The notes below the pieces were generated by a model. The model was not told where the DNA came from. It worked only from the letters and a program-made list of their open reading frames with translations, and ran no database searches. Positions 250-63,297 of a stretch of 64,000 nt of DNA are shown here, in pieces. Every line of letters starts with the position of its first letter. Positions within the stretch are counted from its first letter, which is position 1. Source of the stretch: Lujinxingiaceae bacterium (GTDB lineage Bacteria > Myxococcota_A > Bradymonadia > Bradymonadales > Bradymonadaceae); assembly GCA_013697635.1 (NCBI GenBank), contig JACCWM010000213.1, positions 1 through 64,000 on the forward strand, in the 5' to 3' direction. The translations under genes and the position numbers were made by a program.

Positions 250-3200
250 ATGGAAGTCTCGCAAGCTGCGAATAGCAACCCCTTAGGCCTGAGCCTGGAC
301 TTCATGTTCGGGCGCGGCTACCTGTGGGCTCAGCGCCAGCGCCTCTCGGACTGGATCGCGCTGGAATCGTTGCGCATGGAGATCCCGGATCTGAAGTTTC
401 CCTTCGATGCCAGAACCGGCCTCGATCGCTTTCGCCACACGCGCTGTCTGGTGCGCGAGGTCGAGTTCGCCATCAGCGAGGTCGGACTGGGCGACCTGCT
501 CAGCGAGGCGGCCTCTCAGCTCGACGGCTTCCAGGATCTGCAGGTTCGTTTTTTGGAGGATGCAGCCCACATCAGCCTGCGCGTTCGCGCCTTCGGGGCG
601 AACACCCATATCAGCTTTCGAGCCGCGCTGATTCCCCCCGAGCCGGCGCGCGCCGACGAGATCCACCTCTCGCTCTACGACTACCGCGCCTATGGCCCGC
701 TGCCGTATCCGGCGAGGCTTCTGGCCTTCGAGTTGATGACGAGCCTGCTCAACACGCCGACCTTGCGCGCGCCCGGTCGCGGCCACTCCTTTACCGTGGG
801 CATTGCCGGCGACATCTTGAGCTTTCGCCCGCTCAAGTTGTTGTTCTTGCACATCTTTCCTCGCGTCGGCTGGAAGCTGCCCAACTTGTCGAACATCACG
901 CTCGAGAGCGCGCGCATTCGCCCCGGCGTGCTCACGATTCGCGGCGTCTCGCACGACGACCTGATGCCCAAGAGCCGCCCCGGCGCAGGCTACCATCTGG
1001 CAGCAACGCTCGAAGGTGCGCGGGCGCTGGCGGCCTACGAGGCCAAAGATTTGTTTGCCCACGCCGATCAGGCGCTTTTTGACGGCCAGATACGCCAGGC
1101 GCTCAACATGCTGGCGAGCTACCGAGACATCTACGGGCTGCACCCGGAGCTGGTCTCGCGCCTGCTCGGCTGTCTTGTGGCCGACCCCTCGCCATCGAAT
1201 CTGGCCGAGGCCGAGTCGATCTGTCGCGAGCTCGGCGCCGACGACGCGCGCGATCTGCAGGCGCTTTATGCGCGCCCGATGATCGCGCTGGCCAACGCCC
1301 GAGGTGAGGAGGTCGCCCAGGCCTTCGAGAAGCTCTCGGCCGAGCTGCGCGCGCGCTCAGAGACGGCCGACTGGATTTTGTGCGAGCTCGCTGCCGCGGC
1401 CTATTTGCGCGCGCAGGCACCCGAGGCGGCCGCTTCGCGCCTTCGCGAAGTGCTCAAGGTCGCGCCCCGAAACCGCGTCGCGCTCGAGGAGCTCGGCGCG
1501 CTCTATGAGCGCCTGGGCGAGAATTCCGGCCTCGAGGAGACGCTCAAACGCCTGACCGGCGTCTACACCGATCGCGACACGCTCAAGACCACGTACCTGA
1601 CGCTCGCGCGCCACCTGATGAATCGCTCCGGCGATCTGGGCGAGGCGCGCATGTACCTGGAAAAAGTGCTGCGCCTCGATCCCTCCGAGCTCGAGGCGCT
1701 CAACACCCTGGGCGAGAGCTACGTGCTGGGCGGCGAGCCGCTTCGCGCGCTCAAGGCGTTTGGCTCGGCGGCGCGCGCGGCCGAGTCCAACGCTCTGGAG
1801 CGCCAGGCGAGCAGGCTGCATTTCCGCGTCGCCGAGCTGTGGTTCACCGAGCTGCAGGACCCAAGCCAGGCGCTCTTGAGCTGTCGGCGCGCGCTCTCGC
1901 TTGCTCCGCTCGAAGGCCGCGAGCTGGCCGACATTCAGGAGCGCGCGCGGCTGTTGCGCTTTGCAGCCGAGCTGTGCGAGGCCCGCAGCCGCCACGACGA
2001 GTCGGTGGAGTATTGGACGGAGTTGCTGACGCTGCTCGAGCGCTCCCGCGAGCTGGCCCACGGTGGAGCCGCAAGCCCGGCCTTTGGCACCGAGGAGGAC
2101 GCCGGCCTCGAGATGCGCATCTTCGATGAGCTCGTCGAGGCCAACGAACATCTTGCCAGACTCTACGAGACCCGAGAGCGACCCCACGCAGCGGCCAGCC
2201 ATTGGCGCCGCGTGCTCGAGCTTGCGCCGTCCTCGGGCGTCGCGCTCGAGCATCTCGAGGATTATCTGCGCCAGGCCGGGCGGCCCGAGCAGCTCATCGA
2301 GCTGTACAACGATCTGCTGCGAGGCGCCGAGAGCGCGGCGCGCGCCGTCGCTCTGCACGAAAAATTGGCCGAGATCTACGTGGGCCTGGGCCTGGTCGAC
2401 GACGCTCAGCAAGCGTTTCGTCTGGCCCTTGACGCCGATCCGATCGCGGTTCGACCGCGCCAGGCGCTGATTGGCCTTTTGCGCGAGAATGGGCGCTTCG
2501 AGACGCTTCGCGACGCCTTGAACAGCCTGCTCGTGCGCATGCGCGATCGCGACGTGCGCTGGGAGCTGCTCGTCGAGCTCGGCGACGTGCTCGAGCGCAA
2601 CCTGGCACAGCCCGCCGCTGCTGCACGCGCCTATGTCGAGGCGATGCAGCTCAAGCCCTCGGAGCGCATCGCGCTCGAAGGCGCCTGCCGTGTGCTCGAA
2701 GCCCTCGTCGCCCAGAGCGGGCCGAGCGCGCGCGCGCCCGTCGGCACCCAGGAGCTTGGAAAGCTGCTCGAGCACATGCTCATTCGCATGGCCGAGATCG
2801 CCCCGTCTGCGGCCCAACAGCGCGAGGCGCTGATCAAGCTCGCCCTGTTGTGCGAAGAGCGCGGTGATGCAGCCGCCGGGGCCGAAGCCCGCAACCGCGC
2901 CCAGGCGCTTGTGGCAAGCAGCGAGGGTGAGACCGACTTTGTCAACGTGGACAGCCGCCTCGACGCCATGCTCCTGGGTGATGGCGATGATGGCGATGCC
3001 ATCGACGACTTGCCCGAGGAGGACGATGAAGCCGCCAGCCCGTCGGCGGAGCACCTCGACCCAGCGGCGGGGCTCGAGACCTTTCGCGACAAGTTTCAGG
3101 CCATGCTCAAGCGGCCCGCCAACCTGCCCGAGCGCGCCACGCTCGATCCGGACTCAGCGCTCGGGCGCGTGATCGGTGCGAGCGCGCACCCCGCCGGCCA

Positions 3201-4482
3201 ACAAGCAGCCGCCCAACAAGACGGCGCGCCGCCGGCGGTTGATGCGCCCATGGCCGCACTCGAGCGCGCGCGCCAGGTGGGCAATCCCGAGGCGATCGTC
3301 GCCTGCTTGAAGACCGTGCTCGATGACGACGCCACAGATATCGTCTTCTTTGAGGGCCAGCGCCTGGGCCTCGAGCGCGAGCTGGGCGAGCTGCTCTACT
3401 ACGAGCTCGAAGACGCCGAAGCCGCGCTGCCCTATCTCGAGGCGGTGCACCGGGCCGAGCCCGAAGGCGCCGGCGGCGCAGCCTCGGTGGTCAACGCGCT
3501 CGAGTCGATCTACGAGGAGCAAGGCCGCCTGGGTGCGCGCGTCAAGCTGCTCGAGGCGCGCCTCAAGGCCGCCGAGACAGCCGAGATGGATCTGACCTAC
3601 CGCCTGCTGCTAGCCCAGCTGGTCTGGGACCGCGGCGCCGACGCGGCGGCCGCGCGCGGCTGGCTGGGCGGGGTGATCGAGCGCGACCGCCAAAACGAGG
3701 CCGCCCATCGCCTGCTCGCCGAGATCGCCAGCGCCGAGGGTGACTTTGAGCGCGCGGCAACCCACATGAAGACCGTGCTCGTCGTCGCCGGCGGTGGCCT
3801 CGACGCCGTCGAGGTCGAGCGCGAGCTGGCCGATATGTTGCTCAACCGTCTGGGCGACCCGGCGCGCGCGCGCCCCCACTATGAGAGCGTGCTCACCGCG
3901 GCGCCGGGCGACTCGCTAGCCCTCGAGGGCATCAAGCAGTGCCAGGCCGCCGCCGATGACTGGGCCGGCTATGTCGCCAGCCTTGGCCGCGAGCTCGGCC
4001 TGCTCACAGGAAAACCCGGCGGACTGAGCCTCGTGCAGATGACCGAGGTCAAAGCCGATCAGGTCCCCTCGGTGTTGCGCGTTGCGGCCAGCCAGATCAT
4101 CTCCGACGCCGCCCAGATCGTCGAACACGATCTGGGCGAGCTCGAGCAAGCCCGGCGGCTGTGGGGCCTGGCCTTTGAGCTCTGGCCCGAGCATGTCGAG
4201 GCGCTCGAGCGGCGAATAGAACTTGACCGCGGCCTTCAAGCCAACGACGATCTCGCCGGTGACCTGGAAGCCTATTCGGCGATGCTGCTCGATCCCCGCG
4301 CGCGCTTCGAGGCGCTCATCGAGTGCGCGAAGCTGCACGCCGAGGTCTTGGGCAATGTGGACGCCGCACGACCGCTGTACGCCGAGGCCATCGCCATGGT
4401 TCATGACGAGGAGAACCCACCCGATGGCTTCGACGAGGCGCGACGCGCCCTGAAATCTCTGCAACCCGGTGACGATCGCTAG
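250..4482 (+). CDS. Large cytoplasmic TPR-repeat protein (1,410 aa)
   Basis: No signal peptide or membrane segment is visible, so it is probably cytoplasmic. Residues about 1-260 form a beta-rich N-terminal domain that I cannot name. From about 280 to 910 there are successive helical pairs of TPR type, with recurrent patterns such as ALEELGALYERLGE and ALNTLGESYVLGGEPLRALKAF. An acidic linker rich in D and E lies at about 912-930, and a second TPR block runs from about 1000 to 1400. ATG 250 is chosen because AAGGG lies just upstream; TTG 235 in the same frame would add five residues. TPR arrays are protein-interaction scaffolds. Its position before an OmpA-family protein and a propeller lipoprotein suggests an envelope-linked assembly, but that is inference. 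Confidence 0.85.
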   Translation: MEVSQAANSNPLGLSLDFMFGRGYLWAQRQRLSDWIALESLRMEIPDLKFPFDARTGLDRFRHTRCLVREVEFAISEVGLGDLLSEAASQLDGFQDLQVRFLEDAAHISLRVRAFGANTHISFRAALIPPEPARADEIHLSLYDYRAYGPLPYPARLLAFELMTSLLNTPTLRAPGRGHSFTVGIAGDILSFRPLKLLFLHIFPRVGWKLPNLSNITLESARIRPGVLTIRGVSHDDLMPKSRPGAGYHLAATLEGARALAAYEAKDLFAHADQALFDGQIRQALNMLASYRDIYGLHPELVSRLLGCLVADPSPSNLAEAESICRELGADDARDLQALYARPMIALANARGEEVAQAFEKLSAELRARSETADWILCELAAAAYLRAQAPEAAASRLREVLKVAPRNRVALEELGALYERLGENSGLEETLKRLTGVYTDRDTLKTTYLTLARHLMNRSGDLGEARMYLEKVLRLDPSELEALNTLGESYVLGGEPLRALKAFGSAARAAESNALERQASRLHFRVAELWFTELQDPSQALLSCRRALSLAPLEGRELADIQERARLLRFAAELCEARSRHDESVEYWTELLTLLERSRELAHGGAASPAFGTEEDAGLEMRIFDELVEANEHLARLYETRERPHAAASHWRRVLELAPSSGVALEHLEDYLRQAGRPEQLIELYNDLLRGAESAARAVALHEKLAEIYVGLGLVDDAQQAFRLALDADPIAVRPRQALIGLLRENGRFETLRDALNSLLVRMRDRDVRWELLVELGDVLERNLAQPAAAARAYVEAMQLKPSERIALEGACRVLEALVAQSGPSARAPVGTQELGKLLEHMLIRMAEIAPSAAQQREALIKLALLCEERGDAAAGAEARNRAQALVASSEGETDFVNVDSRLDAMLLGDGDDGDAIDDLPEEDDEAASPSAEHLDPAAGLETFRDKFQAMLKRPANLPERATLDPDSALGRVIGASAHPAGQQAAAQQDGAPPAVDAPMAALERARQVGNPEAIVACLKTVLDDDATDIVFFEGQRLGLERELGELLYYELEDAEAALPYLEAVHRAEPEGAGGAASVVNALESIYEEQGRLGARVKLLEARLKAAETAEMDLTYRLLLAQLVWDRGADAAAARGWLGGVIERDRQNEAAHRLLAEIASAEGDFERAATHMKTVLVVAGGGLDAVEVERELADMLLNRLGDPARARPHYESVLTAAPGDSLALEGIKQCQAAADDWAGYVASLGRELGLLTGKPGGLSLVQMTEVKADQVPSVLRVAASQIISDAAQIVEHDLGELEQARRLWGLAFELWPEHVEALERRIELDRGLQANDDLAGDLEAYSAMLLDPRARFEALIECAKLHAEVLGNVDAARPLYAEAIAMVHDEENPPDGFDEARRALKSLQPGDDR

Positions 4483-18552: not shown

Positions 18553-19830
18553 ATGACCCAAGTGACAGCGAAGACCAACAAGATTGTCTTGAGCACGGCC
18601 GGCACCTGGGGCGACGTGTTGCCCTTTATCGGCCTTGGCCGGGCTTTGTGCGCGCGCGGCCGCCACGTGGAGCTCGTGGCCAACGCCAATTTTGCCCACG
18701 CAGCGCGCGCACAAGGCGTGCCCTTTGTGCCGCTGGGCAGCGCCCGGGACTACCAGCGGGCGGTGCGAAACCCACGGCTTTGGCACCCTCGCCACGGGCT
18801 CAAGCACCTGATCGATCTGCTCCTGCCCGATCCGCTCATGGCCTTTGAACGCCTGATGGAGCGCGTCGAGCTCGCCCACACCACGCTCGTCGCCCATCCC
18901 CTGAGCTTCGCCGCGCGCCTGGTCCAGGAGAAGCACGCTGTGGCCTGCATCTCCCTGGTGCTCTCCCCATGTTGGTTTCGCAGCCGCTACCGCGTTCCGG
19001 TGATGGTCGGCGCCCAGGATATGAGCGCGATGGCCCGACCGTTGAAGTCCTTGATGTGGCGCCTTGCCGACTGGCTACACGTCGATCCGGCCGTCACGCC
19101 CGGCCTGAACAAAGCGCGGCGCGCGCTGGGCCTGCGCCCGATCCGGCGACCCTTCGATCGCTGGATCTACTCCCCACAACTGACGCTGGGCCTCTTTCCC
19201 GACTGGTTTGCACCCGCCCAACCGGATTGGCCCACCCAGCTTCGCCTGACCGGCTTTGCGCCCTCCAAGTCGTTTGTGCCCGTGCCCGAGCCCGTCGAAG
19301 CCTTCTTGGCTGCCGGCTCGGCCCCCGTGGTCTTCGCACCCGGAACCGGCGTGGCCGACACCGACGCCTTCTTCGAGACCGCACAACAAGCATGCCGGCG
19401 CATCGGCCGGCGCGGCCTGCTCCTCTCGATGCAGAACAAGCAGCCGCCCCCAACCCACGACACCGACCAGTTTCTCCACGCTCCCTTTGCCCCGCTCGAC
19501 GCCATCTTAGCCCGCTGCGCCGCGCTCGTTCACCACGGCGGCATCGGCACCACCGCCCAGGCACTTGCGGCCGGGATCCCCCAGGTCGTGCGCCCGCTCA
19601 CCTACGACCAACCCGACAACGCCGCCTGCGTCCAACGCCTCGGCATCGGCACCCGCATCCTCCCCAAGCACTTCACCCCCTCCACCCTGGCCCTCGCGCT
19701 CGACCATCTGCTCACCGATCCGACCACCGCCCAACGAAACCTCGCACTCGCCAGCACCATCGACCCCACCCAAACCCTCGAGACCATCTGCGCGCTCCTC
19801 GATGACGAAAAATCGGGGCAACAAGGCTAG
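18553..19830 (+). CDS. GT1-family (UDP-glycosyltransferase/MGT-like) glycosyltransferase
   Basis: The 425-residue protein has the GT-B layout of family 1 glycosyltransferases. The N-terminal acceptor domain starts IVLSTAGTWGDVLPFIGLGRAL. The C-terminal donor domain contains the nucleotide-sugar signature HHGGIGTTAQALAAGIPQVV near residue 326, followed by DQPDNAACVQRLGIG. These enzymes add a sugar from a nucleotide donor to lipids, sterols or secondary metabolites. The acceptor cannot be inferred here because no lipid or natural-product genes flank it. It is 100 bp after the acidic protein gene, and a strong intrinsic terminator lies 53 bp after its stop. Confidence 0.92.
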   Translation: MTQVTAKTNKIVLSTAGTWGDVLPFIGLGRALCARGRHVELVANANFAHAARAQGVPFVPLGSARDYQRAVRNPRLWHPRHGLKHLIDLLLPDPLMAFERLMERVELAHTTLVAHPLSFAARLVQEKHAVACISLVLSPCWFRSRYRVPVMVGAQDMSAMARPLKSLMWRLADWLHVDPAVTPGLNKARRALGLRPIRRPFDRWIYSPQLTLGLFPDWFAPAQPDWPTQLRLTGFAPSKSFVPVPEPVEAFLAAGSAPVVFAPGTGVADTDAFFETAQQACRRIGRRGLLLSMQNKQPPPTHDTDQFLHAPFAPLDAILARCAALVHHGGIGTTAQALAAGIPQVVRPLTYDQPDNAACVQRLGIGTRILPKHFTPSTLALALDHLLTDPTTAQRNLALASTIDPTQTLETICALLDDEKSGQQG

Positions 19831-19880
19831 AACGACCAGCATCTGCCGGCATTTCCGGCGTTGCAAGCCTGGCTGCTCGG
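19830..19880 (+). repeat. Single copy of dispersed palindromic element (AGCC-N-GGCT family)
   Basis: About 50 bp just after the glycosyltransferase stop match the segment at about 49437-49490 with few differences. Shared blocks include CCAG-ATCTGC, TTTCCGGCG and AGCCTGGCTGC. The core AGCC-T-GGCT (19866-19874) is palindromic around one base. The same core, in the opposite orientation, builds the array at 61861-62565. It abuts the terminator, whose left arm also uses CCTGGCTGC. Confidence 0.7.
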
Positions 19881-49387: not shown

Positions 49388-49436
49388 GCGCGCTTCACTG
49401 CCGGTACCCTTTGCGAAATCGGGGGTGCTCAGGCCG

Positions 49437-49546
49437 AACGGCCAGTATCTGCGAGGGTTTCCGGCGCTGGCAGCCTGGCTGCCCATCGCCCGGCGCTGGC
49501 AGCCTGGCTGCCCATCGCCGGCTGCCCATCGCATGGCTGCCATCGC
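49437..49546. repeat. Tandem 29-bp repeat carrying the AGCC-N-GGCT palindrome
   Basis: Two perfect 29-bp units lie at 49462-49490 and 49491-49519. Each contains the palindrome GGCAGCC-T-GGCTGCC (49469-49483 and 49498-49512). Partial units (GGCTGCCCATCGC) follow to 49546. The left flank from about 49437 matches the single copy at 19830-19880. It lies between the SWIM gene and a lipoprotein gene, both on the plus strand. No coding potential is evident. Confidence 0.8.
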
Positions 49547-57834: not shown

Positions 57835-58276
57835 TGCTACCTCCAAAGTGGTAGGTCCGCAGACCAAGACGAACAATCCGACCCTATTGTGCAGGTCAGT
57901 TTTCGGTTGCTTTGCATGGGGGGTGGCCCAGTTCAGGCGTCGCCTCCTCAGTATCTGCTCTAACTGCGCGCGATTTCCCATTCATACACGAGCCGGGCTT
58001 AAAGGTCCAATCGGACCCGGTCTGTGATCGATTGTGAACAGTGAGAATAATAGACCAGCCTGTTGAAGTGCGGATCCTGCTGATTAAGTTTCACCTCAGC
58101 TCATCTCGCCTTTGAGAACTTACGGCGGTCAGGTCCACCTCGAATTGAGGATTGGACTGACCTGCAATGTGCCTTTGTGCGCAGGGCAGGGAACAGCCCC
58201 CTTGCCCGAAGAGGTGTGGGAGCGGGCGTGTCATTGGAAATTAGTGACTGAAGGATCGAGCCCATGGGAGGCTGTG
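57835..58276. other. Gene-less divergent region, 442 bp
   Basis: Between the WGR-like gene (minus) and the fusion lipoprotein gene (plus). The part from about 58061 to 58276 is a diverged copy of 60661-60884, upstream of the paralogous lipoprotein: GAAGTG-GGATCC, TTTCAC, CGCCTTTGAGA, ACGGCGG/ACGACGG, and the GGAACAGC and GCGGGCGTGT blocks recur in order. So the promoter and leader were duplicated with the gene. No small gene is visible. Confidence 0.7.
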
Positions 58277-60598
58277 ATGGATAAGAGACATCTACTTAAT
58301 GGATTTATGGCTGGCGCTGTCGTGCTGGCAATGTGCGCCTGTGCGCCAGAGCCGCCGGACGCGACGCCGACTCGCTCGTCCGGCGTCGCGCTGGCCATAG
58401 GCTTGAGTTCGCATTCTGATACGTCGAAGCTTCGTTTCGACGTTTCGAGCTGTGAGGGCCAGGCTGTCTTCTCCTCGATCAAGAGGATTGAGGAGCTCAG
58501 GTTTCCCGGTGGCGCGCTGTCGTTGGCCAATCGCTCGTTTGATGCCCCAGGCACTCATATCTTTTTGGACCATTTCTTGAGCGTGCCGCAGGGCTGTTAC
58601 GACCTCGCTGTCGTACCGCTTCAGGCAGACGAGACGCCCTCGTTCAGCTGTGAGAAGACGGGGCTTGAGAATATTTTGGTAAGCCGCGGCCAGAGCACCG
58701 AGCTTTTGTTGACGAGCCGCTGCGACGAAAAGGCCGAGTCCACGGTCAATGCCCTTGGCGCGCTCAACTATCCGCCGCATATCGAGGCGCTGGTCTACGA
58801 TCCCTCAAAGTTTTTGTTGTGCCCGGCCAAGGGCCCGGTGCATTTGACGCTTTGCGCCACGGCCCGCGATCCGGATCACGATCTGGTCGAGTTTGTCTGG
58901 ACGCAGCTCAGCGGCATGGAGCTCGATGCTGGACCGGTCGTCGTCGAGGAACACTTCGCCGGCGACAAGCGCGTGCAGTGCGTGTCGATCAGCTTTGCGC
59001 GCGCAGCCCACGTCTACAACTTCGAGCTGATGGTCTACGATCTTCTCGACCATGCAAAGCAGCCCACGCGCATCGAAGACTGGTTGCAGGCCAATGGCTA
59101 TCCTGAGGCCACCTCACATGCCAGGCTCACCTTTCCCGTCTACGTCAGCTGCACAGACGAAACCCCAGACGCGGGCTTTGAAGACGATTCCGGCGGCAAG
59201 TTCTATCCGGACACGGGCCACAAAGAATGTCCAGACTCGGGTGAGAAGAGCTACCCGGACACGGGCGACAAAGAATATCCAGATACGGGTGACAAAGAAT
59301 ATCCGGACACCGGTGAGCAAAAGGGCGATCACGACGCCGGTGAGCAAAAGGGCGATCACGACGCCGACGAGCAAAAGGGCGATCACGACGCCGACGAGCA
59401 AAAGGGCGATCACGATGCCGACGAGCAAAAGGGCGATCACGACGTTGGCATCGACGCCCATGGTCCTCTCGAGCCCGATACAACCGACCAGCCAACAAAG
59501 GGCAAAGACGACTACCTGGCCTCGGGCGGTGGCCTGAGCTGTGCCACGGGGAGCACTTCGGCTCCGAGCCCGGCCAGCGCCTTGTTTTTGCTTGGACTGC
59601 TCGCGATGTTCGGACTGAGGCGCTGGCGAGGCCTCTCACGCGCCGGACTTGGCCTGCTCGCCATTGGCCTGTGCATGACGTGGTCGAGCACGGCATTTAC
59701 TCAAAACGAGGTCAAGGGCAGCGTTCCTGGCCAACAGTTCGAACCGCTGCCCGGGGGCGACGCAAACTTCGCTGCCGTGGGTGGGACCGGCGTCCACGAT
59801 CACCTGCAGATCTCGGCCGGTCTGTATCTGGGGTATGCTCACCGCTCGTTGATGTTGCGCTCGCGCTATCGCAACGATCGCGTCGAGCTCATTCGCCACC
59901 ATCTTTCGGCCGACCTGGTCGCGGCCATCGGGCTCTTCGATCGCTTCGAGCTGGGATTGGCCATGCCGCTGACCTTATATCAGGAGGCCGGCGCCTCCTC
60001 GACGTTGCCGACCGTGCGTTTGATGAGTGCAGCCGCAGGTGATCTGCGTCTGTATCCGCGCGTCAACCTTCTCAGCGCATCCGAGGGGGTCGGCCTTGCG
60101 CTGCTGGCGATCACGACCCTGCCCACCGGCGACGAGCTCAGTTTTCAGGGCAACGGCGGCGCGACCTTCGAGCCGCGCCTGCTCGCTGAATATCGCTTCG
60201 AGGAGGCCGGTCGCCTGGGAGCAAACCTTGGCTATAGGGTGCGCTCGAACCGTCAGTTTCTCAACATCGCCGTCGGCAACGAACTCACCTATGGTTTGGC
60301 CTACGAGCATACCATCGTGCCCGATCGGTGGAGCTTGATGGGCGAGCTCTATGGAAGGCTTGCCCTCGACCGTGAGGTTCCCGTGATGGTCGAAAACTCA
60401 CCGCTCGAGCTGATCTTCGGCACCCGTTTGCACCTCGCTGGCAACCATGCCCTGACCGCCGCCGGTGGCCCTGGCCTCACGGCCGGCTACGCAACGCCGC
60501 TGTGGCGCACCTACCTGGGTTACGTCTTTACACACAATCCAGGTGTGGACTCGCAAGTAGAGGGGCAGACCCCGGCGCCCGGCAAAGCCAGCGATTGA
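58277..60598 (+). CDS. MYXO-CTERM lipoprotein fused in frame to an outer-membrane beta-barrel
   Basis: ATG 58277, after GGGAGG, starts a lipoprotein signal with Cys20/Cys22. Residues up to about 300 form an extracytoplasmic domain. In-frame repeats follow: 24-bp units (YPDTG-like) and five 27-bp units (EQKGDHDAD). Then a MYXO-CTERM-like tail appears: GGGLSC (Cys422), a hydrophobic stretch and RRWRG. Instead of stopping, the frame continues through a second signal-like hydrophobic segment (AGLGLLAIGLC) and into a barrel at about 475-760. That barrel is related to the OmpA-family porin at 4535 (GANLGYR, GNELTYGLA). ATG 59606 could be an internal start. A real fusion, or an old stop-codon loss, is possible. 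Confidence 0.85.
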   Translation: MDKRHLLNGFMAGAVVLAMCACAPEPPDATPTRSSGVALAIGLSSHSDTSKLRFDVSSCEGQAVFSSIKRIEELRFPGGALSLANRSFDAPGTHIFLDHFLSVPQGCYDLAVVPLQADETPSFSCEKTGLENILVSRGQSTELLLTSRCDEKAESTVNALGALNYPPHIEALVYDPSKFLLCPAKGPVHLTLCATARDPDHDLVEFVWTQLSGMELDAGPVVVEEHFAGDKRVQCVSISFARAAHVYNFELMVYDLLDHAKQPTRIEDWLQANGYPEATSHARLTFPVYVSCTDETPDAGFEDDSGGKFYPDTGHKECPDSGEKSYPDTGDKEYPDTGDKEYPDTGEQKGDHDAGEQKGDHDADEQKGDHDADEQKGDHDADEQKGDHDVGIDAHGPLEPDTTDQPTKGKDDYLASGGGLSCATGSTSAPSPASALFLLGLLAMFGLRRWRGLSRAGLGLLAIGLCMTWSSTAFTQNEVKGSVPGQQFEPLPGGDANFAAVGGTGVHDHLQISAGLYLGYAHRSLMLRSRYRNDRVELIRHHLSADLVAAIGLFDRFELGLAMPLTLYQEAGASSTLPTVRLMSAAAGDLRLYPRVNLLSASEGVGLALLAITTLPTGDELSFQGNGGATFEPRLLAEYRFEEAGRLGANLGYRVRSNRQFLNIAVGNELTYGLAYEHTIVPDRWSLMGELYGRLALDREVPVMVENSPLELIFGTRLHLAGNHALTAAGGPGLTAGYATPLWRTYLGYVFTHNPGVDSQVEGQTPAPGKASD
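59204..59449 (+). repeat. In-frame 24-bp and 27-bp tandem repeats in the fusion lipoprotein
   Basis: Four and a half 24-bp units lie at 59204-59314 (YPDTGDKE-type peptides). Five 27-bp units with starts at 59315, 59342, 59369, 59396 and 59423 follow, each encoding EQKGDHDA plus one variable residue. They form an acidic flexible linker between the lipoprotein domain and the MYXO-CTERM tail. The paralogue at 60885 has fewer and shorter versions. Confidence 0.9.
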
Positions 60599-60884: not shown

Positions 60885-61844
60885 ATGAAAAAGAGACGCC
60901 CATTATATTCCTTGTTAACAGGACTCGGCCTGGTTTTTACGCTGACGGCCTGTGTGTCCGAAGCACCCGTCGAGGTGCCCCACAACCCCCCTCAAATTGT
61001 CCAATTGAGCTGGAGTGATCATAACACCGGCGCAGTTGAACTCGTGGCCCCATTCTACTCCGTGGCGAGGCACGTGGAATGTGATCCAAACATCAAAGAT
61101 CCAGTTTACATGGAATTTCGCGCTCTTGCCCAACGCAGCGAACGCGTGCCCAAGCGCTCATGGGGTACTCCACTTCCCTGGATGCAGTTCCAGTGGGAGC
61201 AGATCGGTCAGGATCTCGTCGCAGTTCACCACGGTGTGATCTGCGACGAGATTAACTCCCAAGAGCACATCCAATGCATAGCTCGGAGCTTTGAACGCCG
61301 GACTCGAGACTACACATTTCAACTCACAGTCTACGACCTGGTCAACTCCGAGCCATACGATCCGAGCTCCGAGCTTGTTCGCAAGGAAGATTGGCTGCGC
61401 GAGAACGGCTTCCCCGACGCCACCTCACACACCACGCTCAACTTCACAGTTCAAATCATCTGCGACGACAAGACCTATCCCGACGCCGGCGACAAGAATT
61501 ATCCCGACGCCGACGACAAGATCTATCCCGACGCCGACGACAAGACCAATGACGATGCCGGCGACAAGACCTATGACGATGCCGGCATCGGTGGAGGCCC
61601 GCAAGACATTGATCAAAAGGGCGACCACGATGCCGACGATCAAAAGGGCGACCACGATGTCGAGAACCCTCTTGACCCCATTGACCTCGATCGGCCTCAG
61701 CCGAAGGCTCTCGACGACCATACGGCATCGGGAGGTGGATTGAGCTGTGCGGCGGCTGGTTCTGCATCGTCGAGTACAACCAGCGCCTGGTTCCTGTTAG
61801 CTGCACTCGCTGTCTTCGCCCTTAGGCGACGACGGCGAATTTAG
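60885..61844 (+). CDS. MYXO-CTERM lipoprotein, paralogue of the N-terminal half of the gene at 58277
   Basis: The start ATG lies seven bases after GGAG. The 319-residue protein has a lipoprotein signal ending LTAC at Cys23 and a domain with the same order as its neighbour (QLTVYDLV, EDWLRENGFPDATSHT). It carries 24-bp repeats at 61476-61586 and two DQKGDHDAD-type units. The C-terminal sorting tail has Cys288 in GGGLSC, a hydrophobic stretch and RRRRR. Here the frame stops right after the Arg cluster, as usual for MYXO-CTERM proteins. Function unknown; the pair is likely cell-surface exposed. Confidence 0.9.
   Translation: MKKRRPLYSLLTGLGLVFTLTACVSEAPVEVPHNPPQIVQLSWSDHNTGAVELVAPFYSVARHVECDPNIKDPVYMEFRALAQRSERVPKRSWGTPLPWMQFQWEQIGQDLVAVHHGVICDEINSQEHIQCIARSFERRTRDYTFQLTVYDLVNSEPYDPSSELVRKEDWLRENGFPDATSHTTLNFTVQIICDDKTYPDAGDKNYPDADDKIYPDADDKTNDDAGDKTYDDAGIGGGPQDIDQKGDHDADDQKGDHDVENPLDPIDLDRPQPKALDDHTASGGGLSCAAAGSASSSTTSAWFLLAALAVFALRRRRRI
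61476..61586 (+). repeat. 24-bp in-frame repeats in the second MYXO-CTERM lipoprotein
   Basis: Four 24-bp units start at 61476, 61500, 61524 and 61548, with a partial fifth to 61586. They encode YPDADDK/N-type octapeptides, related to the 24-bp units of the neighbouring paralogue. Confidence 0.85.
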
Positions 61845-62152
61845 CCCTCGCTGCGCACCGCAAGCCCGTTGCTGCAAGCCCATGTTGCTGCAAGCCAGGC
61901 TTGCAATGTTGCTGCAAGCCAGGCTTGCAATGCTGGAAGTCCGCATCACAATGTTGCTGCAAGCCAATGTTGCTGCAAGCCAGGCTTGCAATGCTGGAAG
62001 TCCGCATCAAGACTAGACGATCGAGCTGTCTACCCCCGGTTTTGCATGTTGCTGCAAGCCAGGCTTGCAATGCTGGAAGTCCGTGCATGTTGCTGCAAGC
62101 CAGGCTTGCAATGCTGGAAGTCCGCATCAAGACTAGACGATCGAGCTGTCTA

Positions 62153-62183
62153 CCCCCGGTTTTGTGCGGGGGGGCCCGCTTTT
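62153..62183 (+). terminator. Hairpin copy in the array (first complete)
   Basis: CCCCCG (62153-62158) pairs with CGGGGG (62167-62172) around GTTTTGTG, followed by GGCCCGC and TTTT. This may stop plus-strand transcription from the lipoprotein gene. An earlier copy at 62032 lacks the right arm. Confidence 0.45.
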
Positions 62184-62340
62184 AGAAGCATGTTGCTGCA
62201 AGCCAGGCTTGAGCATGTTGCTGCAAGCCAGGCTTGCAATGCTGGAAGTCCGCATCACATGTTGCTGCAAGCCCATGTTGCTGCAAGCCAGGCTTGCAAT
62301 GCTGGAAGTCCGCATCAAGACTAGACGATCGAGCTGTCTA

Positions 62341-62370
62341 CCCCCGGTTTTGTGCGGGGGGCCCGCTTTT
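62341..62370 (+). terminator. Hairpin copy in the array (second complete)
   Basis: CCCCCG (62341-62346) pairs with CGGGGG (62355-62360), then GCCCGC and TTTT. It sits immediately before the duplicated gene tail. Confidence 0.45.
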
Positions 62371-62426
62371 AGAAGAGGGTCGCAAAGCCAGCGCCGACGC
62401 TGGCAGGCACGCGAAATGTGATGCCG
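62369..62426 (-). pseudogene. Duplicated 3' end of the lipoprotein gene at 62566
   Basis: From 62371 to 62426 the sequence equals 62568-62623 base for base over 56 bp, the last codons of the minus-strand gene. The stop TTA on the plus strand (62369-62371) is also kept. Downstream the two diverge at once. The offset is 197 bp, matching a duplication of array plus gene tail. It encodes FRVPASVGAGFATLF again, with no gene body. Confidence 0.9.
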
Positions 62427-62536
62427 TGTTGCTGCAAGCCATGTTGCTGCAAGCCAGGCTTGCAATGCGGGTGTTGCTGCAAGCCAGGCTTGCAATGCGG
62501 GAAGTCCGCATCAAGACTAGACGAGCGAGCAGTCCA

Positions 62537-62567
62537 CCCCCGGTTTTGTGCGGGGGGGCCCGTTTTT
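62537..62567 (+). terminator. Hairpin at the 3' end of the outer-membrane lipoprotein gene
   Basis: CCCCCG (62537-62542) pairs with CGGGGG (62551-62556), followed by GGCCCG and TTTTT. The last T residues overlap the stop codon of the minus-strand gene, so the hairpin could serve both directions. Confidence 0.45.
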
Positions 62568-63297
62568 AGAAGAGGGTCGCAAAGCCAGCGCCGACGCTGG
62601 CAGGCACGCGAAATGTGATGCCGAAGAGTAGCATCGTGGCCTCGCGCTCGCCGAGCCAGGCATGGCCGAGCTCGGTGAATAGACCGATGCCGGCCTCGCC
62701 GTACATCAGGCCGGCGCCGCAGACCAGCGTTGCCGGTTGGACCAGATCTTCGGTGAAGGGGTTGGGTTTGCCTGGCTCGCCAGGAGGGTAGATGGTTGGT
62801 TCTGCGACCGTGCATGAACTCAGGGGGCCCGAGGTGAAATTGACCGACTCGAAGCCCAGTCGAAGGGCGGCGCCGGGGCCAACACCGGCGCCGCCTTGGT
62901 GCGAGAAGTGATAGTAGCCGCGAGCACCTAGCTGCAGGCGCAGGGAGGAGGAGTTCCCGGTGCTTTCATTGGGTAGAATACCAACCAGCCTCGAGAAGCC
63001 GAGATCGAGATAAGGGCCGTGGTGGTAGCTGGCAAAGATCAGGCCCTCGAAGTGATAGCCGGCTCCAAACTCGACGGCGCGACCGACTTGCTCGGCTGCG
63101 AGCTGCATTGGATAGAAGCCTACGCCAAGGGGCACGACCAGATCCAGTCGCGAGCCGTTGACGCCATGGCGCGCGCCAGCGCCAATCTCAACCTGCACCG
63201 GCGGCAACACCCAGGCCAGCGGCATGCATCCTGCCAGCAGCAGCGAAGCGAGAACGGCCAACGTTACAAGTGGGCCTGATTGCTTGTCCTTTGTCAC
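62566..63297 (-). CDS. Outer-membrane-like lipoprotein (243 aa)
   Basis: GTG 63297 is preceded by GGAGG six bases upstream. The lipoprotein signal ends LLAGC at Cys24. The mature part alternates Gly/aromatic strands (FEGLIFASYHHGPYLDLGF, RLQLGARGYYHFSHQGGAGVGPG, AGIGLFTELGHAWLG) and ends in Phe, as outer-membrane barrels do. Two Cys pairs may bond. Function unknown. The array has copied its last codons; the nearby hairpin repeats also overlap the stop. Confidence 0.82.
   Translation of the reverse strand: MTKDKQSGPLVTLAVLASLLLAGCMPLAWVLPPVQVEIGAGARHGVNGSRLDLVVPLGVGFYPMQLAAEQVGRAVEFGAGYHFEGLIFASYHHGPYLDLGFSRLVGILPNESTGNSSSLRLQLGARGYYHFSHQGGAGVGPGAALRLGFESVNFTSGPLSSCTVAEPTIYPPGEPGKPNPFTEDLVQPATLVCGAGLMYGEAGIGLFTELGHAWLGEREATMLLFGITFRVPASVGAGFATLF

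What the first reader, a model, noticed from the sequence alone, without database searches (positions are those of the whole stretch)
61861..62565. Array of a palindromic intergenic repeat family that looks undescribed
Ten GCAAGCC-A-GGCTTGC cores (nine perfect) and several half units, interleaved with a second conserved block and a GC hairpin, fill about 0.7 kb between two lipoprotein genes. Each core has 7-bp arms around one base. Spacing is not constant and there are no unique spacers, so this is not CRISPR. It looks like a REP/BIME-like element that grows by tandem duplication, perhaps a structured RNA, a nuclease- or recombinase-recognised site, or a domesticated mobile element.
Basis: seen in the sequence. 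Interest (0 to 1): 0.75.

Follow-up and report, generated by a model that had tools for sequence, protein, structure and literature searches.

The report
REP-like mobile repeat, tandemly expanded
The 0.7-kb array is one locally expanded copy of a scattered 62-nucleotide DNA element that sits beside, and is probably mobilised by, single-strand-cutting (HUH) transposase genes in the same genome; it looks like a new branch of the known REP/RAYT repeats, with an unusual habit of growing by tandem duplication from one fixed edge.

Summary
In detail: 14 units, ten palindrome cores (nine perfect), between convergent lipoprotein genes. The exact core occurs nowhere else in the genome, but profile searches show that the unit belongs to a diverged, dispersed family: 56 matches of a ~62-nt element (NAGCCNGGCTTNCA...GGGAAATCC...CTGG...CACCCCCG) at E<=3.6e-6, and 42 copies align without a gap. 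Copies are mostly intergenic, with convergent gaps over-represented. No RNA fold is conserved and no frame is open. The genome carries four paralogous 360-377-aa Y1/HUH transposases (best NCBIfam hit: REP-associated tyrosine transposase). Each has an element starting 258-283 nt upstream of its ATG, in the gene's orientation (one is weak). A second genus with related transposases has its own version of the element, next to the genes and dispersed. Oddity: 16 of 52 copies outside the array show exact tandem duplications starting about 7-13 nt 5' of the element and ending at variable points, often the hairpin tip; the window array is the extreme case. Transposition, and any transposase role in the duplications, are inferred.

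The parts
61867..62565 (+). Array of 14 head-to-tail units; each is a prefix of flank plus element, cut at a different 3' point
61977..62038 (+). Full 62-nt element copy in the array
   Evidence: R1/R2 match
62097..62158 (+). Full 62-nt element copy in the array
   Evidence: R1/R2 match
62285..62346 (+). Full 62-nt element copy in the array (151-nt unit, which also carries the end of the downstream gene)
   Evidence: R1/R2 match; the repeat finder D5
62481..62542 (+). Last full 62-nt element copy, next to the downstream gene; differs at several bases from the other array copies
   Evidence: R1/R2 match; sequence
49420..49481 (-). Dispersed copy of the same family elsewhere in the window, with a 29-bp exact tandem duplication at its left edge
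19814..19875 (-). Dispersed copy of the same family elsewhere in the window, with a 15-bp exact tandem duplication at its left edge
60885..61844 (+). Flanking gene: MYXO-CTERM lipoprotein-like protein, convergent with the next
62566..63297 (-). Flanking gene: lipobox-bearing protein; its 3' end is partly duplicated into the array

Best explanation
The array is one local expansion of a dispersed, non-autonomous REP-like element. The element is a fixed-length ~62-nt block: a left hairpin (AAGCC-N-GGCTT here), a conserved internal box and a right-end C-tract (CACCCCCG). It is most likely recognised as folded single-stranded DNA by Y1/HUH transposases encoded in the same genome, each of which has a copy starting 258-283 nt before its start codon, and is spread by them. 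SHOWN: the family, its fixed length, mostly intergenic location, linkage to four transposase paralogues, linkage in a second genus, and exact tandem duplications sharing a left boundary about 7-13 nt outside the element. INFERRED: that the transposase cuts or moves the element, and that a recurrent nick or stall beside the hairpin, followed by fill-in and rejoining with little or no microhomology, makes the tandem duplications. In the window about a dozen such events piled up at one copy, giving the 0.7-kb array with its many truncated units. I see no sign that the array itself does anything for the flanking genes.
For: R1, built from three loci, finds about 40 dispersed copies in this genome and none in 57 relatives, best E 0.026; R2: 56 matches at E<=3.6e-6. 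42 copies align over 92 columns with no gap. Four paralogous Y1/HUH proteins, best NCBIfam NF047646 REP_Tyr_transpos. An element upstream in the gene's orientation at all four, starting 283, 280, 263 and 258 nt before the ATG; a random point has a copy within 1 kb with probability about 0.017. Related transposases in genus G011 are preceded by tandem elements of the same plan, with further dispersed copies; none at E<=0.1 in three genomes lacking the gene. 16 of 52 copies outside the array carry an exact tandem duplication across the element start, against 0.056 arrays per kb elsewhere.
Against: No GTAG/GGAG guide motif and no class-2 Y---NP motif. No empty site is available, so transposition is not shown. 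NF047646 is hit below its curated cut-off. The C200 upstream copy is weak (15 bits). G003 has a related transposase but no recognisable element. No common dinucleotide is evident at the duplication boundaries, unlike the CT/CA cuts of studied TnpA-REP enzymes, so the link between enzyme and duplications is unproven.
Confidence: 0.75

Rival explanations
1. The dispersed element is REP-like, but the tandem growth is ordinary replication slippage or template switching at a hairpin, with no part played by the transposase.
For: The right boundary often falls at the hairpin tip; the left boundary is set by distance, not by sequence. Truncated copies share the private mutations of their own locus, as any local copying would give. 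Hairpins are known to cause such events (general knowledge; e.g. the review PMC7999016).
Against: Junctions show 0-3 nt of slide, about what chance gives, whereas slippage usually uses longer homology (inference). The shared left edge 7-13 nt outside the element, across loci with unrelated flanks, asks for something that measures distance.
Confidence: 0.4
2. A one-off minisatellite: the array is a local accident and the profile matches are chance or convergent GC-rich sequence.
For: The exact core and the whole unit are unique in the genome.
Against: R1 gives E down to 1.6e-14 at loci not used to build it, against 0.026 in relatives; gap-free alignment; linkage to transposases in two genera.
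Confidence: 0.03
3. A short protein-coding motif (KPGF..GK....HPR frame) that recurs through the genome.
For: Ungapped alignment; only 5 of 42 copies have a stop in that frame; synonymous-looking changes among the first three loci.
Against: Stops occur in every frame; variable columns show no clear codon periodicity (10, 7, 12); at C76 the real gene runs in another frame.
Confidence: 0.03
4. A structured non-coding RNA or bidirectional terminator family.
For: Preference for gene ends and convergent gaps; hairpins in single copies.
Against: No conserved pairs on 42 copies; no Rfam match over the array; no terminator-like site found in the region.
Confidence: 0.05

Closest known systems
REP sequences / REPtrons with TnpA-REP (RAYT) transposases (PMC2817692, PMC6006769, PMC8266576)
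   Same: Short palindrome-bearing repeats, dispersed between genes, linked to a single-domain-core HUH/Tyr transposase that lies beside copies of the repeat.
   Different: 62-nt fixed-length element with a conserved right end instead of a 20-40-nt hairpin; no GTAG/GGAG guide; transposase with Y---NR instead of Y---NP and a long C-terminal part; copy number about 50.
TIRtrons / TIRYT (PMC3733652)
   Same: Tyr transposases flanked by longer non-GTAG repeats that can form moderately abundant families, sometimes clustered; some lie at similar distances from the gene.
   Different: The GGGGWSAS motif fits only 2 of 42 copies; an inverted downstream copy was seen at only one of four loci here (C102) and at G011 C285.
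TnpAY1 subclass 2.3 (PMC6006769)
   Same: Long proteins (median 325 aa) with NHYH/WE motifs, an insertion in the core and a long C-terminal domain.
   Different: Subclass 2.3 has YVDLNP and was reported without REP-like partners; the proteins here have Y[IV]E[ANT]NR and do have a partner repeat. No direct sequence comparison was made.
BIMEs / REPINs (PMC2817692, PMC3116915)
   Same: Local clusters of REP-type repeats.
   Different: Copies here are mostly single or head-to-tail nested truncations, not regular inverted pairs; one head-to-head pair lies at C102:26149-26316.

Membership tests
REP/RAYT (REPtron) | Multi-copy, mostly intergenic repeat with a palindrome | tested here: met
   56 matches; 40 of 53 intergenic by a simple gene finder
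REP/RAYT (REPtron) | Y1/HUH transposase gene flanked by copies of the repeat | tested here: met
   Four of four paralogues have an upstream copy, one of them weak
REP/RAYT (REPtron) | GT[AG]G guide tetranucleotide at the hairpin foot | tested here: not met
   Columns 5-9 of the 42-copy alignment
REP/RAYT (REPtron) | Class-2 Y---NP motif of the transposase | tested here: not met
   Y[IV]E[ANT]NR in all six proteins examined
REP/RAYT (REPtron) | Transposase cuts single-stranded repeat DNA | not testable with these tools
   Needs biochemistry
TIRtron/TIRYT | GGGGWSAS motif in the flanking repeats | tested here: not met
   2 of 42 copies; in the source paper the motif is shared by some TIRs, not all
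TIRtron/TIRYT | Inverted copies on both sides of the transposase gene | tested here: inconclusive
   Seen at C102 and at G011 C285; not at C170; C138 and C200 unclear
CRISPR array | Regular repeats separated by unique spacers | tested here: not met
   Units abut, lengths 15-151 nt, no unique spacers
Structured RNA family | Conserved base pairing across copies | tested here: not met
   RNAalifold 0 pairs on 42 copies; no Rfam match over the array

The most novel reading that the evidence does not exclude
The shared left boundary 7-13 nt outside the element is the scar of in-vivo cutting by a new subclass of HUH transposase (Y---NR), and this enzyme produces nested tandem duplications as a product: a one-sided, distance-measured tandem-duplication activity not known to me for REP or IS200/IS605 systems.
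Probability: 0.3. Interest if true: 0.75.

Novelty: new variant of a known kind. Interest (0 to 1): 0.55.

Why it matters
REP repeats are widespread, yet how they spread is still described as poorly understood (PMC8266576). This family offers a longer element with two conserved ends, a distinct kind of transposase, a second genus with a diverged but matching pair, and over a dozen loci that preserve duplication scars at base-pair precision. Those scars give a directly testable prediction of where the enzyme, or the replication fork, breaks the DNA.

Tried and rejected
Exact-core and 106-nt DNA searches suggested a one-off minisatellite; misleading, because copies are only about 63-75% identical. 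Pattern scans of GTDB and viral contigs gave one isolated hit each, regarded as chance. Plasmid and phage DNA searches found nothing; plasmid tblastn of the peptide and of the transposase found nothing useful. Coding reading: rejected on stops and lack of periodicity. RNA structure: rejected. Target-primed reverse transcription (fixed 3' end, variable 5' truncation) was considered; locus-private mutations in the truncated copies favour local duplication over new insertions. Homologues of the flanking genes in relatives are too distant (best 31-41% identity) for a synteny comparison. A PDB profile search with the transposase alignment found no Y1 structure by sequence. Structure prediction was not attempted, because its stated rule does not cover proteins from genome-search loci. 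G003's transposase flanks show no recognisable element.

Full report
CHECK OF THE OBSERVATION. The window holds ten GCAAGCCNGGCTTGC cores between 61890 and 62493, nine of them perfect, against 0.78 expected by chance in the whole window. Fourteen units, all opening with TGTTGCTGCAAGC (the first with CGTTGC), fill about 61867-62565 between two convergent genes. Each unit is a prefix of one full unit, cut at a different 3' point, and the longest carries part of the neighbouring gene. Seven perfect two-copy duplications with periods 15, 16, 16, 24, 25, 30 and 41 can be read directly; five show 0 nt of slide at the junction and two show 2-3 nt.

A MISLEADING FIRST ANSWER. The exact core exists nowhere else in the 6.21-Mb genome, and the 106-nt unit gave only one weak extra hit, 75% over 63 bp. 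That hit lies at the facing 3' ends of two genes and aligns without gaps from the palindrome to a CTGTCTACCCCCGG block. A short pattern gave a third locus with the same skeleton. A sequence-only profile of these loci (R1) found about 40 dispersed copies in the genome and none in 57 relatives, best E 0.026. A profile of 42 copies (R2) gave 56 matches at E<=3.6e-6; 52 of these lie outside the array, two of them elsewhere in the window. Most of the 56 are copies that built R2, so the independent support is the R1 search.

WHAT THE ELEMENT IS. The 42 copies align over 92 columns without a single gap. Conservation is concentrated in a left box (GNAGCCNGGCTTNCA...GGGAAA..C), a weak CTGG box and the right end (ACCCCCG); it fades outside, apart from a C six bases before the element. 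There is no conserved RNA pairing, and stops occur in every frame. Forty of 53 copies are intergenic in a sample where about 89% of the DNA is called coding, and convergent gaps are over-represented, 15 of 35 against 18 of 157 (my own simple gene finder, so approximate).

THE TRANSPOSASE. The genome has eight Y1_Tnp matches. Four belong to one family of 360-377-aa proteins, 42-72% identical to the first, with NH[FL]H, W[ED]G and Y[IV]E[AT]NR. Two of them were scanned against NCBIfam; the best match is the REP-associated tyrosine transposase, below its curated cut-off. In all four loci an element lies upstream in the gene's orientation, starting 283, 280, 263 and 258 nt before the ATG; the one at C200 is weak. 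Copies also lie downstream, at C102 (inverted) and, further off, at C170. With about 52 copies, a random point has one within 1 kb with probability about 0.017.

A SECOND GENUS. Of 57 relatives only G011 and G003 have related transposases. Both G011 genes are preceded by tandem 62-63-nt elements with the same plan (AAGNNNNNCTT ... ACCCC) but a different hairpin. A mixed profile (R3), built in part from these G011 copies, finds about nine further dispersed candidates in G011, E 8.5e-6 to 0.07; they are mostly weak singly, but nearly all have AAG just before and a CCCCG right end. It finds none at E<=0.1 in three genomes of the family that lack the gene, two marginal hits in a genome of another family, and none in G003. 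The element therefore seems to diverge together with its transposase, with G003 as an unexplained exception.

FIXED-EDGE DUPLICATION. Sixteen of 52 copies outside the array carry an exact tandem duplication spanning the element start, against 0.056 such arrays per kb in 550 kb of other DNA from the genome. In 13 of the 14 uniquely placed cases the left boundary can lie within or next to the range 7-13 nt 5' of the element, with different flanking sequence at each locus (some neighbouring copies are not independent). The right boundary varies but is most often the hairpin tip. The window array has the same left boundary. One G011 pair also starts 12 nt out. Truncated copies share the private mutations of their own locus, so they arise locally.

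HOW IT PROBABLY WORKS. By analogy with characterised systems (PMC8266576, PMC6006769), the hairpin would be recognised as single-stranded DNA and the strand cut at a set distance. Repair of such an anchored nick would give tandem duplications without homology. This is inference. The TnpA-REP enzymes studied cut at CT or CA, and no such dinucleotide is evident at the boundaries here. Hairpin-induced slippage remains a serious rival for the duplication step (0.4), though not for the existence of the element family.

COMPARISON. It works like a REPtron or TIRtron, but two features that mark REP/RAYT systems were tested and not met: the GTAG guide and the Y---NP motif. The GGGGWSAS motif of many TIRtrons is also missing. 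Long TnpAY1 proteins of subclass 2.3 were reported without REP partners (PMC6006769), but I made no direct sequence comparison with them. I therefore file it as a new variant of the REP/RAYT kind, not as a member of a described subclass. The literature check was limited to the open library held here.

Noticed in passing
window 59204-59444 and 61466-61663: The two neighbouring MYXO-CTERM-type genes both carry in-frame 24- and 27-bp tandem repeats (GDKEYPDT-like and EQKGDHDA-like), so the whole locus has seen repeat expansion.
   Followed up: no
window 58112-60598: One long ORF matches MYXO-CTERM in its first half and the outer-membrane exchange protein TraB model (E 1.2e-30, below cut-off) in its second half; probably two genes read in one frame.
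   Followed up: no
L195 ~1348-1405 and L198 ~1345-1401 (C170 and C102): A second conserved stretch (GATCTCTCGATAACAAGTAG-like) lies between the element and the transposase start, with similar sequence at C138 and C200; perhaps a promoter or another transposon-end feature.
   Followed up: partly
L122 around 2900-3400 (C176): A further repeat, GCGCAATCGACGGCC-like, occurs several times around the C176 element copy.
   Followed up: no
L147 (C173:5000-11000) and L139 (C14:20001-25500): Simple 18-bp and 12-bp (C173) and 12-bp (C14) tandem arrays lie just upstream of two element copies.
   Followed up: no
C191:16843-17184, C73:319-669, C5:6126-6320, C32:131272-131472: Four further Y1_Tnp matches of other types in the same genome; two look IS200-like and two are 333-351-aa frames with a Y---NP-like motif. 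Partner repeats were not looked for.
   Followed up: no
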